A DNA stretch of 64,000 nt from NCBI GenBank assembly GCA_001464355.1, contig LNEU01000023.1:62001-126000 (forward strand), given 5' to 3'. A program made the translations under genes and the position numbers. The stretch comes from Burkholderiales bacterium Ga0077544. Its GTDB lineage: Bacteria > Pseudomonadota > Gammaproteobacteria > Burkholderiales > Burkholderiaceae_D. The notes under the pieces were generated by a model. That model made no database searches, had not been told where the DNA came from, and worked only from the letters and a program-made list of their open reading frames with translations. This document shows positions 23,269 through 26,947 of this stretch, piece after piece (the first letter of the stretch is position 1; each line of letters starts with the position of its first letter).

Positions 23269-23288
23269 TTTGGTTGCGGGGGCAGGAT
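23269..23288. repeat. Left attachment site (attL) of the tRNA-fMet element
   Basis: Direct repeat tttggttgcgggggcaggat, identical over 20 bp to 26928-26947. It is a displaced copy of the tRNA-fMet 3' end (CCA, discriminator, acceptor strand and part of the T-arm) plus two flanking bases. Bases beyond it diverge at once. Confidence 0.88.
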
Positions 23289-23493
23289 ACGTTTCCCCGC
23301 CGCCACCTAATATCGCTAACCCATTGATTCCGCAGAAAAAGCGCAAATTAAACTTCCGGTTGCGGGTTCAAACAGGTGTGGCACGAAGTGTATCACAAAG
23401 GATTTGCGATAAAAACCTTTCTTTCTAATCTGGGCATGCGGCCACCTGTTTGAGAAAGTATCTACAGGAAACGGACCAGCAAAGGAAAATGGT

Positions 23494-23826
23494 ATGACGG
23501 ATGACCAAAAGAAAAAAGGCAGAGTGCCAAAGGCGATCAGAGTCAACGATGAAGAATGGAAAACGTGGGGCGAGATAGCAGGAAAGCTCGGCTTGACCCG
23601 CTCGGCCTTCATCAAACAAGCCACGGCAAACGCTGCGCAGTTGGTTTTGGCGGGTGGTCTTCCGTATTTTGTCGAGGCGGCGCAGCCGACTACACAAAAT
23701 ACGCGCATTAGTTTTTTTGGGGACGAAGTCACCGAAAAAGGTAATGCGGGCGACCGGCGCCAAAGGCGTGGCGTTAGCCAAGGGAGCGACGACGAAGGCG
23801 GCAAAAAGCGCAAGCCCAAAGGCTGA
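23494..23826 (+). CDS. Small putative DNA-binding protein of the element
   Basis: A 110-aa protein. Residues 10-45 (VPKAIRVNDEEWKTWGEIAGKLGLTRSAFIKQATANAA) resemble a ribbon-helix-helix or similar small DNA-binding fold: a short beta strand, then two helices separated by LGLTRS. The C-terminal third is a charged Lys/Arg/Gly tail (RRQRRG, KKRKPKG). AAAGGA lies seven bases before the ATG. It is 28 bp upstream of a tyrosine recombinase gene on the same strand, so an accessory or regulatory role in recombination is a reasonable inference; no specific family is claimed. Confidence 0.6.
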   Translation: MTDDQKKKGRVPKAIRVNDEEWKTWGEIAGKLGLTRSAFIKQATANAAQLVLAGGLPYFVEAAQPTTQNTRISFFGDEVTEKGNAGDRRQRRGVSQGSDDEGGKKRKPKG

Positions 23827-23854
23827 GCGTTTGACAAACTGAGAAGGAGTGCTT

Positions 23855-25051
23855 GTGCCACTGCTGAACCAAAAAACGACGAGGGAAATTCAGGAGAGCG
23901 ATACGCGAACCCTGAATGACCTCGTGCGTTTTTTGCGTGCGGAAGTGGCACAAGCTAAGCCCATCGCCGCGAATAGTCAGAAGGAGTATTCGCGGCGATG
24001 GGACCGGCTGACTACTGAAAACAAGGACGAGCGATGGGATATGAGCAAAGCTGGTCAAAGTGAGCGTTATACGATGCGAGCCGCCGGGGTCTGGGTGATG
24101 CGAGACAAGATCAGAGAGCTGCTGACCGAAGCCGACAAAATCCAAAGGGGCAAGGGCCACTACAACGATCGCGAGGCTGAGCGGGGGAAAGTTCTAGCCA
24201 AGGCATACAAGTGGATGGTTCGCTTGGACCAATTCCGCGCGAAGCCTTGGAAAGAATATGTGTTTGATGAGGCGACTAAGCAGAATGTGAAGCTGCTCGA
24301 AAAAGAAACAAAGGAGTTGAAGGCGCTGAAGCAGGAGGCGAGCCATAAAAAACGGGCCGCTACGGATGAACAGCTAAGCAAATTTTTTGCTGCTGTCGGC
24401 TCGTCCCAGTTCCGACAAGCATTCTTAGTCACGGAGTTCACCGGATGCCGGGGCGAGGAGCTGGGACGGGGTGTGCGTATTGAAGCGGCCACTCTGAAAG
24501 ATGGGAGCCGCGTCCTCTCGTTTTTCATTGAAACCGCTAAAACGGACGGAAACAAAAAAGGGATTCCGGTTCGTAAGGTGGTGAGTGTGTTCCCTGCGAA
24601 AGGCAGTCCCGAAGTTCAGGCGCGCTGGAACGAACTAGCGGACGCTGCTAAAAGCAAAAAGAATTTCGTTGTGACGGCTGCTGAGACTGGGAAGCAAACG
24701 GCGGGACAGCGCTTCACTCAAAATTTCCGAAACTATGCAAAGAAAGCCGAGTTAAAAATTTCTGCTTACTCACTCCGTCATCGTGTCTCCTCTCAAGCAA
24801 AATCATGCAGCGGCGCTACAGCAGAGAACACGGCTTTAGTCCTTGGGCATCAATCCGTGGAGACGCAAAGACACTATGGGCGTGCACAAGGAGGGATTTC
24901 GCCTGCAACAATCATTGGCGTAAGCGTTTCCGGTGAAGTGCCTCGAGGCAGAAGTCCTCAGCGTGTTGCGGCGCGTGATGCCATGTTCATTGGGGCCGCA
25001 GTCGCCTCCCCTCCACCGATAAAACAAAAACCGCGCGGCCCAAGGCTCTGA
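23855..25051 (+). CDS. Tyrosine recombinase A (variant active site)
   Basis: A 398-aa protein starting at GTG 23855, chosen because AAGGAG lies five bases upstream; an in-frame GTG two codons earlier is too close to that site. Catalytic pattern: box I Arg in TGCRGEEL (R199), a Lys in the beta-hairpin region ETAKTDGNKKG, box II YSLRH at 305-309 where most enzymes have HxLRH, then LGH (H332) and the nucleophile Tyr in ETQRHYGRA (Y341). N-terminal residues 15-160 are helical and Lys-rich, consistent with a core-binding domain. The C-terminal 45 residues form a basic Pro/Arg tail. It faces recombinase B tail to tail. Confidence 0.8.
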   Translation: MPLLNQKTTREIQESDTRTLNDLVRFLRAEVAQAKPIAANSQKEYSRRWDRLTTENKDERWDMSKAGQSERYTMRAAGVWVMRDKIRELLTEADKIQRGKGHYNDREAERGKVLAKAYKWMVRLDQFRAKPWKEYVFDEATKQNVKLLEKETKELKALKQEASHKKRAATDEQLSKFFAAVGSSQFRQAFLVTEFTGCRGEELGRGVRIEAATLKDGSRVLSFFIETAKTDGNKKGIPVRKVVSVFPAKGSPEVQARWNELADAAKSKKNFVVTAAETGKQTAGQRFTQNFRNYAKKAELKISAYSLRHRVSSQAKSCSGATAENTALVLGHQSVETQRHYGRAQGGISPATIIGVSVSGEVPRGRSPQRVAARDAMFIGAAVASPPPIKQKPRGPRL

Positions 25052-25093
25052 GGCTCGCGGAGCGGTTATTTGGAAACCCCACCGCAGGCAAAA

Positions 25094-25441: not shown

Positions 25442-25467
25442 GAGTTGTCCCTTTTATAGTTATTCGA

Positions 25468-26853
25468 TCAGACGACTGTTTTCGATTTTGCCCAGTTCTT
25501 GTGATCGGCAACGAAGCCTGCGAATCGTCCATCATATTTTAAGCTAGCAGCATCAATCGGCCAGCTCAGGCCATCAACAATCGGCTTCAAATCTGGCAAA
25601 TCTCGCACGTATCCGAGATGGATTTCATCTGCACCGCTCTGTTTATGACCGGCGATTTTCATGGTCTGAGCTGTGTTGGCGCTGTTATTTGCGAGAGCGG
25701 TGATGACATTCACTCGGAAGGAGTGAAAACTCTTGTGATCATTCGCTTTCTTAATGCCACGCTCAGTCATGTAAGCGAGCATTTTTGCAGACAGGTTTTT
25801 AGAATAAGTCCCGTTGATAAGAAGACGATGCGGGAAAATTCGCTCCGCTCCGGCCTGCCTCACCTCTTCCACATAATTCAGAAAGCCCAGGTCAAGTAAG
25901 GCGTCCGAGATAGGGACATTACGCACACCAGCCGTGGTCTTGCTTTTAGGGACAAAGATAAAGTGAACGCCGTTATCGGCCTGCTGCACATCTTCGCAGC
26001 GGATCGCGGTTACTTCACTAATACGCATGCCCGTATAAATTCCAATGAGCGGTGCCCAGAAAAAATCTGGTGAGTTCATCGCTGCTGCATAAGGAACCGG
26101 ATCGAAGAAAGTAGCGAGGTCGGTTTTGGTGAAGGGCTGAAATGGCTCGTTTTTTGCGACGCGTTCCGCCTTTGAGAGGACAAACAAACCGTCAACAGGG
26201 TTGGAATTCGATACGGTATAAAGACCGTGGCCGAGCATATAAGTGAAGAAGTCGTGCAACGACATCAATTTGTTATCGATGGTTTTGCCGGTTTGACCTT
26301 CCGTCAAGAGTGCGGATTTGTAACCGACGAGGACGGCTTTTGTGATGGCGTTGACTTCAATGTTGCTTGCGATCCGTCGCATGAAGTCTTTGGCGTGGTA
26401 TCGCTTGGCATCCACAGTGCGCTTACCGTTCTTTTTCGCTCGCTCGGCCAACCAAAGAGTGACAGCTTCGGATACTGGGAGTGATTTCAATACTGGAGTC
26501 GGAGCGGTTGCGGGGACTGTCGCTAGCGGCTGCATATGCGGTGGGATAGGGCCGATACGTTCCAAGGCATCCATCATCCGCGCGTGATCGTCGGGACCGT
26601 CCGCTTTATAGACGCCGTTCTTTAAATCAATTTCATAACGCCGAAGTGCTGCTGGGTCAAAATTAAAATCTGACAGCTTGGGATTGGACATAGCTCGCTC
26701 TCGCTCAAAATTGGCGTTCAGTTGCAGAGCGATTATAGCGGCAGTATGTGGACACTTTGTCCGGAGACTAAAGCGACGGTCAGAAGTGGCGGTCTTAATA
26801 CGAAAATAAAAGACGCCGCAGCGATTGCGAATCAATCGCGGAGTTTTGATCAT
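25468..26853 (-). CDS. Tyrosine recombinase B (site-specific integrase)
   Basis: A 461-aa integrase with a complete catalytic set: Arg in TGMRISEVTAIR (R277), Lys in PKSKTTAGVRNVPI (K305), HSFR (H377, R380), AGHKQ (H403) and the Tyr nucleophile in EIHLGYVRD (Y415). The N-terminal 50 residues (RCGVFYFRIK...RRFSLRTKCPHTA) look like the beta-rich domain found at the start of many phage-type integrases, and residues 125-225 form the SAM-like core-binding domain. The gene starts 75 bp from the right repeat, pointing inward, the usual place of the integrase that catalysed insertion. It is the better candidate for the element's integrase. Confidence 0.9.
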   Translation of the reverse strand: MIKTPRLIRNRCGVFYFRIKTATSDRRFSLRTKCPHTAAIIALQLNANFERERAMSNPKLSDFNFDPAALRRYEIDLKNGVYKADGPDDHARMMDALERIGPIPPHMQPLATVPATAPTPVLKSLPVSEAVTLWLAERAKKNGKRTVDAKRYHAKDFMRRIASNIEVNAITKAVLVGYKSALLTEGQTGKTIDNKLMSLHDFFTYMLGHGLYTVSNSNPVDGLFVLSKAERVAKNEPFQPFTKTDLATFFDPVPYAAAMNSPDFFWAPLIGIYTGMRISEVTAIRCEDVQQADNGVHFIFVPKSKTTAGVRNVPISDALLDLGFLNYVEEVRQAGAERIFPHRLLINGTYSKNLSAKMLAYMTERGIKKANDHKSFHSFRVNVITALANNSANTAQTMKIAGHKQSGADEIHLGYVRDLPDLKPIVDGLSWPIDAASLKYDGRFAGFVADHKNWAKSKTVV

Positions 26854-26878
26854 GGTGGCTCACTAAGTGGCGCACCGG

Positions 26879-26919
26879 AAAAAACAAAAGTCCTTAATTC
26901 ACGAAGGGAATCAAGGACT
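26879..26919 (-). terminator. Terminator behind tRNA-fMet, inside the element
   Basis: On the minus strand AGTCCTT and AAGGACT pair, extended inward with one mismatch, loop about seven bases, then TTTTGTTTTTT. It lies 11 bp past the tRNA CCA end and is on the element side of the junction, so the tRNA now uses an element-borne terminator. Confidence 0.75.
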
Positions 26920-26927
26920 AGCGTTGT

Positions 26928-26947
26928 TTTGGTTGCGGGGGCAGGAT
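26928..26947. repeat. Right attachment site (attR) within tRNA-fMet
   Basis: Second copy of the 20-bp repeat tttggttgcgggggcaggat. It overlaps the last 18 bases of the tRNA-fMet gene (minus strand), so insertion preserved a complete tRNA. Confidence 0.88.

What the first reader, a model, noticed from the sequence alone, without database searches (positions are those of the whole stretch)
23269..26947. Compact two-recombinase element inserted in the initiator tRNA-fMet gene
The 20-bp word tttggttgcgggggcaggat occurs at 23269-23288 and 26928-26947. The right copy forms the 3' end of a complete initiator tRNA; the left is a displaced remnant. Between them are two convergent tyrosine recombinase genes and two small unknown genes, and nothing else. 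Integration into tRNA genes is well known, but the initiator tRNA is an unusual and essential target, and two recombinases with so little cargo is uncommon. It may be a minimal autonomous element, a satellite using a helper, or a deleted island.
Basis: partly seen in the sequence, partly recalled or inferred. Interest (0 to 1): 0.75.

Follow-up and report, generated by a model that had tools for sequence, protein, structure and literature searches.

The report
Tiny tRNA-integrated element with relaxase-like recombinase
A 3.7-kb DNA element sits in the start-tRNA gene of this bacterium; one of its two recombinase-like genes does the integrating, and the other most resembles an unusual enzyme that small plasmids use to be passed between cells, so it may be a very small mobilizable element.

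Summary
A 20-bp repeat (23269, 26928) brackets four genes; the right copy is the 3' end of an intact initiator tRNA. Ten of 12 congeners show the empty site (one masked by Ns, one with about 60 extra bases). P0004 is the tRNA-fMet integrase: of 6 relatives in the host's family, 3 abut an intact tRNA-Met(cat) and nudix gene in the same orientation, 1 an N-interrupted tRNA; 2 do not fit cleanly. Held out, it scores 87 bits against a profile of recombinase-like proteins of tiny plasmids, including MobK of pIGRK, a demonstrated conjugative relaxase, and 42 against integrases; it shares MobK's YxxRH motif. Best reading: a minimal integrative mobilizable element (integrase + MobK-like relaxase + small accessory gene) needing a helper conjugation system. 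The relaxase gene opens with two long hairpins, the most stable fold found in the 64 kb: candidate oriT or translational switch. Against this: P0002 is a lone deep branch with a score below every plasmid member's, has a 198-aa N-terminal region that MobK lacks, and neither oriT nor transfer is shown.

The parts
22185..23111 (-). scpB, left chromosomal flank (not part of the element)
23269..23288 (.). displaced att core: 3' end of tRNA-fMet left at the far end of the element
   Evidence: exact copy of 26928-26947; joins the scpB side as in the empty site
23289..23493 (.). 205-bp noncoding left end with an 11-bp inverted repeat TCAAACAGGTG/CACCTGTTTGA (23368-23378, 23443-23453); alternative oriT or operator candidate
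   Evidence: its overall fold is not unusual (z -0.67)
23494..23826 (+). P0001, 110 aa, possible ribbon-helix-helix accessory/DNA-binding protein
   Evidence: subthreshold hits to DUF6290 and RelB antitoxin (E 0.14-0.15; RHH families by recall); poor single-sequence model (pLDDT 51); no PDB hit
23849..25051 (+). P0002, 400 aa, MobK-like tyrosine-recombinase-fold protein, putative conjugative relaxase; GTG at 23855 is preceded by AGAAGGAG and is the likely start
23851..23955 (.). 105-bp imperfect palindrome (long hairpin 1) at the start of P0002; candidate oriT or translational control element
23960..24002 (.). 16-bp perfect inverted repeat with 11-bp spacer (hairpin 2) inside P0002; candidate oriT/nic-proximal or recombinase-binding site
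   Evidence: (0 of 200 synonymous-codon shuffles reach it)
25094..25441 (-). P0003, 115 aa, unknown; besides its own genome one match in 195 family genomes, the C-terminal part of a protein in a congener's tRNA-Arg region that also has a MobA/VirD2-type relaxase
25468..26853 (-). P0004, 461 aa, tRNA-fMet-specific tyrosine integrase (Phage_integrase)
26889..26919 (-). intrinsic-terminator-like hairpin supplied by the element just downstream of the rebuilt tRNA
   Evidence: 12-bp stem followed by TTTGTTTTTT
26928..26947 (.). att core at the tRNA end of the element
26930..27006 (-). initiator tRNA-fMet rebuilt by the element
27146..27733 (+). nudix hydrolase gene, right chromosomal flank (not part of the element)
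   Evidence: label recalled; conserved next to the tRNA in congeners and in three islands of other genera

Best explanation
It is a very small integrative mobilizable element (IME). P0004 recombines the element's att site with the 3' end of the initiator tRNA gene, rebuilds the tRNA and adds a terminator-like hairpin behind it (integration: shown by the empty sites; P0004 as the enzyme: strongly inferred). After excision as a circle of about 3.66 kb (inferred), P0002, a MobK-like relaxase built on the tyrosine-recombinase fold, would nick an oriT near its own gene through its conserved tyrosine (Y343), with P0001 as a possible DNA-binding accessory. The DNA strand would leave through the conjugation machinery of a helper element (all inferred from homology). 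The two hairpins at the start of P0002 are the best oriT candidates. They may equally act in the mRNA to hold back relaxase translation.
For: Integration: exact repeats, tRNA, empty site at base resolution in 10 of 12 congeners, no second copy of the element in the genome. Integrase: Phage_integrase E 7e-13. Besides the own genome, 6 of the 195 family genomes searched have relatives at E 1e-40. Three abut an intact tRNA-Met(cat) followed by the same nudix gene (L036, L038, L040) and a fourth abuts the core with an N-interrupted tRNA (L041). Relaxase: P0002's plasmid hits are 15 records of 2.3-6.05 kb; it aligns with pIGRK MobK (25% over 201 aa, E 5e-8). Held out of training, it scores 87.1 bits with a profile of 15 plasmid proteins and 39.3 with the five pIGRK-type ones; 11 integrases score at most 27.6 and 11.0, a twelfth -1.3 and -1.7. 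A cleaned integrase profile gives P0002 42.2. Tree of 38: the 27 MobK-like rows are one side of a branch, 96/96. YxxR[HY] replaces HxxR in 25 of 27 MobK-like proteins, P0002 included; the 10 integrase rows in which the scan found the motif have H. The sequence after the tyrosine (P0002 YGRAQGGIS...EVPRG, pIGRK YGRKSKKSKGG...VKPRG) is shared. MobK nicks and mobilizes and needs its tyrosine (PMC8152469: abstract, Results part 1, Discussion, legends). A contig with a P0004 relative also carries a TrwC relaxase (L037), and a P0003 relative lies in a region with a MobA/VirD2 relaxase. Hairpin region: DNA fold z -12.2; its MFE of -62.0 is below all 1485 windows scanned.
Against: P0002 is a lone deep branch (length 1.2) next to the split from integrases, and the other 26 MobK-like rows form their own group (92/95). 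Its 87.1 bits lie below every left-out plasmid member (103-247), and its integrase score (42.2 with the cleaned profile) is the highest of the 27 and within the range of left-out integrases (21.6-167; 3 of 11 at 46.8 or less). It has 198 residues before box I; MobK has 40, and the paper calls MobK, TcpM and MpsA free of core-binding domains. The best genome hit by protein search was 31% identical; 369 genomes of the class gave none at E 1e-8 but its own. oriT is not identified: neither CATTAT nor ATAATG of the related plasmids' palindrome occurs in the element, and the window's palindrome lies inside the gene, not upstream. P0001 as RHH is weak. Two of 6 P0004 relatives do not fit the site cleanly: L039 abuts only the first 12 bases of the core with no tRNA, and L037 ends at a contig end with the core in the opposite orientation. 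No match to one coupling-protein family (PF02534) in this genome, so no resident helper is evident. The single-sequence model of P0002 was too poor to use.
Confidence: 0.6

Rival explanations
1. P0002 is a site-specific resolvase (Cre/Xer-like) carried over from a small plasmid. It would resolve multimers of the excised circle at the loxP-like palindrome 23960-24002, and the element is an integrating plasmid relic without conjugative mobilization.
For: The catalytic residues are conserved. The palindrome has 16-bp arms with an 11-bp spacer, the shape of a recombinase core site. P0002-family genes sit on tiny plasmids, many with a palindrome near the gene: 13 of 28 regions exceed all 60 shuffles, near-identical plasmids counted apart. 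P0002 keeps a long N-terminal region that could be a core-binding domain and scores nearer to integrases than its relatives do. A relative is next to a RepA_C gene (L069).
Against: The one family member studied (MobK) is a relaxase with an oriT (PMC8152469). No replication gene was recognised in the element.
Confidence: 0.21
2. P0002 is a second integrase or an excision partner: the element moves by two cooperating recombinases, as in GInts or two-recombinase IMEs.
For: Two tyrosine-recombinase-type proteins lie in one element. IMEs with tandem recombinase pairs exist (PMC5704250 passages).
Against: Relatives of P0004 occur without any P0002-like gene: in the fetched stretches of 6 such loci the profile scores nothing above 11.6 bits, and its best hits are the integrases themselves. 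The two genes are convergent, not an operon. P0002 groups with MobK-type proteins.
Confidence: 0.09
3. It is the stable remnant of a larger island that has lost its cargo and is no longer mobile.
For: It was found in 1 of 13 genomes of the genus. Degraded or cut P0004 relatives exist (L039, L040, L041). No match to the coupling-protein family searched.
Against: Both repeats are identical, all four frames are open, and both catalytic sets are intact. The deep divergence of P0002 with all catalytic residues kept argues for function.
Confidence: 0.1

Closest known systems
MobK of plasmid pIGRK (tyrosine-recombinase-like relaxases, called MOBM in PMC11389934)
   Same: Tyrosine-recombinase catalytic residues with Tyr in place of the first His of HxxR, shared C-terminal sequence, very small host element, structured DNA near the gene.
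   Different: P0002 is 400 aa with a 198-aa N-terminal region, 25% identical, chromosomal, and beside an integrase; the large hairpins lie inside the gene rather than in an upstream intergenic oriT.
SGI1 (IME with MpsA/MpsB)
   Same: Integrated mobilizable element that combines an integrase and a tyrosine-recombinase-like presumed relaxase (PMC6414798, PMC9299015; passages read).
   Different: SGI1 is much larger (recalled) and inserts in trmE; its core-binding-like MpsB is a separate protein and it needs an sRNA. No sequence comparison with MpsA was made here.
Tn5520 and other minimal IMEs
   Same: Integrase plus mobilization gene with no cargo (PMC5704250: passages and a reference title).
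   Different: Canonical mobilization protein (recalled), and PMC5704250 counts most IMEs found before 2000 as low in site specificity; here a tRNA-specific integrase and a recombinase-like relaxase.
Other loci of the P0004 integrase family (L036, L038, L040, L041 at tRNA-fMet; L037, L039 unclear)
   Same: Same integrase family; same tRNA site in four of six.
   Different: Different neighbouring genes and no P0002-like gene in the fetched stretches; far ends were not seen.

Membership tests
tRNA-targeting tyrosine-integrase island | Direct repeats that are the tRNA 3' end, tRNA rebuilt | tested here: met
tRNA-targeting tyrosine-integrase island | Empty site with one repeat copy in relatives | tested here: met
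   10 of 12 congeners clean; 1 masked by Ns (L018), 1 with about 60 extra bp (L019)
tRNA-targeting tyrosine-integrase island | Intact integrase gene next to the tRNA | tested here: met
Integrative mobilizable element | Excision to a circle | not testable with these tools
   needs the strain or raw reads
Integrative mobilizable element | Own relaxase and oriT | tested here: inconclusive
   P0002 is MobK-like; oriT only a candidate
Integrative mobilizable element | No own conjugation machinery | tested here: met
   four genes only, none with a conjugation-machinery family match; PF02534 absent from the genome
MobK / tyrosine-recombinase-like relaxases | Catalytic residues R, K, (H/Y)xxRH, H and nucleophilic Tyr | tested here: met
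   R201 K231 Y307 R310 H334 Y343 invariant in the 9-row alignment; H311 present
MobK / tyrosine-recombinase-like relaxases | Sequence closer to MobK than to integrases | tested here: met
   held-out profile scores 87.1 vs 42.2 bits, though below all left-out plasmid members (103-247); tree side supported 96/96 but lone deep branch
MobK / tyrosine-recombinase-like relaxases | No core-binding or arm-binding domain | tested here: inconclusive
   198-aa N-terminal region without a Pfam match; seven plasmid relatives have 197-200 aa there too
MobK / tyrosine-recombinase-like relaxases | oriT upstream of the gene | tested here: inconclusive
   hairpins inside the gene's 5' end; upstream inverted repeat weak; no CATTAT palindrome
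MobK / tyrosine-recombinase-like relaxases | Nicks oriT and supports transfer | not testable with these tools
   bench assay needed
GInt islands | ginABCD operon with three integrases and a small HLH protein | tested here: not met
   two convergent recombinase-like genes only; definition from abstract of PMC5385486

The most novel reading that the evidence does not exclude
The element represents a barely seen class: ultra-small IMEs whose only transfer gene is a recombinase-fold relaxase, with the transfer origin folded into the first 150 bases of the relaxase gene itself, so that the same hairpins are oriT and translational brake. The family is wider than known: strong MobK-like hits lie in 12 of 399 genomes of the host's order besides its own, several beside restriction-like and toxin-antitoxin-like genes, and every plasmid record matched in four searches was typed non-mobilizable.
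Probability: 0.25. Interest if true: 0.75.

Novelty: new variant of a known kind. Interest (0 to 1): 0.5.

Why it matters
Relaxase typing decides which elements are called mobile. Every plasmid record matched by P0002 and three family members was typed non-mobilizable (15 of 15, 12 of 12, 30 of 30, 26 of 26, overlapping lists), pIGRK among them, although pIGRK mobilization is demonstrated. A 3.7-kb chromosomal element with a related enzyme suggests that 'double-recombinase' islands should be re-read as integrase plus relaxase, which is directly testable.

Tried and rejected
Close relatives of P0002 and P0004 by back-translated patterns: genome contigs and viral contigs gave none. P0002 in phages: none; P0004 in phages: two weak hits. 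P0001 and P0003 on plasmids: none. P0001 in 300 genomes of the order: own genome and one marginal hit. Defence-system models: no hit for any of the four proteins. Rfam at gathering score: nothing in the element but the tRNA at its edge. AlphaFold single-sequence models of P0002 (pLDDT 42.7) and P0001 (51.0) were too poor for fold searches, so none was run. The sigma-70 promoter scan of the element found none.

Considered and rejected: the hairpins as a dispersed repeat (the only other matches in the genome are their own inverted copies); GInt and SGI1 membership; a phage satellite (no family match to a phage gene other than integrases).

Selection and repair notes: in the palindrome survey 28 gene regions were tested; 13 beat all 60 shuffles, 3 more were reached by one shuffle, and 12 did not stand out; L020/L080, L081/L082 and L085/L086 are near copies. 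The pair table used 6 plasmids chosen because they had the CATTAT palindrome. In one search the integrase profile held 12 rows, one of which (own_L094) I had taken from a wrong frame. On checking I removed it: P0002's integrase score rose from 33.2 to 42.2, and I lowered the main confidence from 0.62 to 0.60. The tree had left that row out. L068, L074 and L075 also matched the plasmid profile but were not in the tree. The same check showed that L037 and L039 do not show the tRNA-fMet site cleanly, which I had first counted as contig-end cases.

Literature: PMC8152469 outline with abstract, Results part 1, Discussion and legends; PMC9299015, PMC6414798, PMC11389934, PMC5704250 and PMC12429752 passages; PMC5385486 abstract and opening of the introduction; others search listings only. 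Nine searches were run; none listed a chromosomal MobK-type IME at an initiator tRNA, which is not proof that none is printed.
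Full report
Observation. The 20-bp core on the tRNA strand is ATCCTGCCCCCGCAACCAAA: part of the T-arm, the acceptor strand, CCA and two more bases. The rebuilt tRNA ends at 26930. Behind it, on the tRNA strand, the element supplies a hairpin with a T-run (26919-26889). The tRNA's 3' 24-mer occurs once in the 34-contig assembly with up to 3 mismatches; identical copies may have been merged in assembly.

Empty site. All 13 genomes of the genus hold the tRNA-nudix region. 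In 10 of the 12 congeners the scpB upstream region runs straight into a single copy of the core and on into the tRNA. One (L018) has Ns over the tRNA and one (L019) has about 60 unrelated bases before it. The element occurs once in its own genome. In the congeners no P0002 match at E 1e-3 and no P0004 match at E 1e-40 was found.

The integrase. P0004 is a conventional integrase (Pfam E 7e-13, PHROG integrase E 4e-32). At E 1e-40, 7 of 195 genomes of the family have it, the own one included. In L036, L038 and L040 the gene abuts tRNA-Met(cat), followed by the same nudix gene; in L040 the integrase itself looks degraded (only 8.2 bits with the integrase profile). In L041 it abuts the core with an N-interrupted tRNA. 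L039 abuts only the first 12 bases of the core and no tRNA was found there; in L037 the contig ends in a core of the opposite orientation, unexplained and possibly an assembly fault. Neighbouring genes differ: TrwC relaxase, DUF3987 and a pilin-like protein in L037; OLD-type ATPase/TOPRIM plus UvrD helicase in L038; a PAPS-reductase-domain protein in L040. The far ends of these islands were not seen, so the cargo is presumed. This integrase family thus repeatedly uses the initiator tRNA with unrelated cargo.

The second recombinase. P0002 matches no Pfam family. Its tblastn hits among 72,556 plasmids are 15 records of 2.3-6.05 kb, all below 60% identity. Searches with three of the relatives widened the set and reached pIGRK. 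Its integrase-like gene is mobK, a relaxase shown to nick oriT and to need its catalytic tyrosine (PMC8152469). P0002 and MobK align at 25% over 201 residues, E 5e-8. A profile of 15 plasmid proteins, built without P0002, gives P0002 87.1 bits; the best of 11 integrases gets 27.6. A profile of the five pIGRK-type proteins gives 39.3 versus at most 11.0. With a wrongly framed row removed, the integrase profile gives P0002 42.2; left-out integrases get 21.6-167 with it, and left-out plasmid members get 103-247 with theirs. P0002 therefore leans clearly to the MobK side but stands between the groups. In a 38-row tree the 27 MobK-like rows form one side of a branch (96/96), with P0002 a lone long branch closest to the split. 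YxxR[HY] replaces HxxR in 25 of 27; the other two have T. In 7 plasmid relatives box I starts at residue 197-200, as in P0002 (198), versus 40 in MobK. P0002 is not close to the member whose function was tested.

Wider family. In 399 genomes of the order, the 9-row profile gave matches at E 1e-6 in 126, most of them weak and probably ordinary recombinases; 12 besides the own genome reach about E 1e-20 or better. The context of those 12 was read. Three have a strong integrase profile hit in the fetched stretch apart from the MobK-like gene itself (L070, L072, L073). L070 repeats the window's layout: a tRNA-Val/tRNA-Asp pair, a DUF6538 integrase, then a convergent MobK-like gene. Others lie next to type I restriction-like, toxin-antitoxin-like, AlpA or RepA_C genes (the first two labels recalled from sequence, the last two).

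Structured DNA. Bases 23841-24012, covering the start of P0002, fold into two successive hairpins (23851-23955, 23960-24002): DNA z -12.2, RNA z -11.8, 0 of 200 shuffles as good in each. The MFE of -62.0 is below that of all 1485 windows scanned along the 64 kb. Shuffling synonymous codons of P0002 200 times never gave a palindrome as good as 23960-24002. The ORF is probably real there: a strong Shine-Dalgarno-like AGAAGGAG precedes GTG 23855, and the sequence from about residue 38 aligns with relatives. Six related plasmids have a CATTAT...ATAATG palindrome about 200-250 bp upstream of the gene, with invariant outer pairs and inner pairs that mostly change together. Neither half of that motif occurs in the element. 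In pIGRK the oriT lies upstream of mobK; here the strongest structure lies inside the gene. It could be oriT, a recombination site, or a device that hides the start codon in mRNA.

Accessory genes. P0001 has the sequence pattern of ribbon-helix-helix proteins only at subthreshold level. P0003's single other match in 195 genomes is the C-terminal third of a 331-aa protein beside tRNA-Arg(cct) in congener G002, in a region with a MobA/VirD2-type relaxase, a weak MobC/NikA-like protein and an integrase.

Mechanism and confidence. Integration at tRNA-fMet by P0004 is as good as shown (about 0.95). Mobilization through P0002 is inferred from family membership (0.60 for the whole IME reading, lowered from 0.62). 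A helper conjugation system would be required; the genome has no match to PF02534, the one coupling-protein family searched, so transfer would probably depend on an incoming element.

Novelty. IMEs, tRNA targeting and recombinase-fold relaxases are each known, and SGI1 already pairs an integrase with such a presumed relaxase. What is new is the combination in 3.66 kb with a MobK-like protein, at the initiator tRNA, with the strongest structure inside the relaxase gene: a new variant of a known kind.

Noticed in passing
L020, L078, L080 (plasmids NZ_AP025661, NZ_CP103493, NZ_CP056859): Plasmids of 2.3-2.8 kb on which the MobK-like protein is the only annotated gene (L020, L078; L080 carries no annotation); what replicates them is unclear, and Rfam found no RNA in L020 at gathering score.
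   Followed up: partly
records: Every matched plasmid record was typed non-mobilizable, pIGRK included, although pIGRK mobilization has been shown; a blind spot of relaxase typing.
   Followed up: partly
L070:4588-8469: tRNA-Val and tRNA-Asp, a DUF6538 integrase and a convergent MobK-like gene: the window's layout in another family of the order; the contig ends before a far repeat could be seen.
   Followed up: partly
L098:7910-16220: Region beside tRNA-Arg(cct) in congener G002 with a MobA/VirD2-type relaxase, a weak MobC/NikA-like protein, an integrase and a P0003-like protein.
   Followed up: partly
L037:10140-10279: The tRNA 3'-end core at this contig end runs opposite to the other islands relative to the integrase; assembly fault or a different arrangement.
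   Followed up: partly
L038:3142-6259: OLD-type ATPase plus UvrD helicase pair beside a tRNA-fMet integrase; resembles a Gabija-type defence pair (name recalled).
   Followed up: no
L019 around 1380-1500: About 60 bases of unrelated sequence between the scpB side and tRNA-fMet in congener G012; could be a scar of another insertion.
   Followed up: no
window:34793-35153: cspA thermoregulator RNA (Rfam RF01766).
   Followed up: no
L069:5601-7948: AlpA-like and RepA_C genes directly upstream of a MobK-like gene: possibly an integrated replicon.
   Followed up: no
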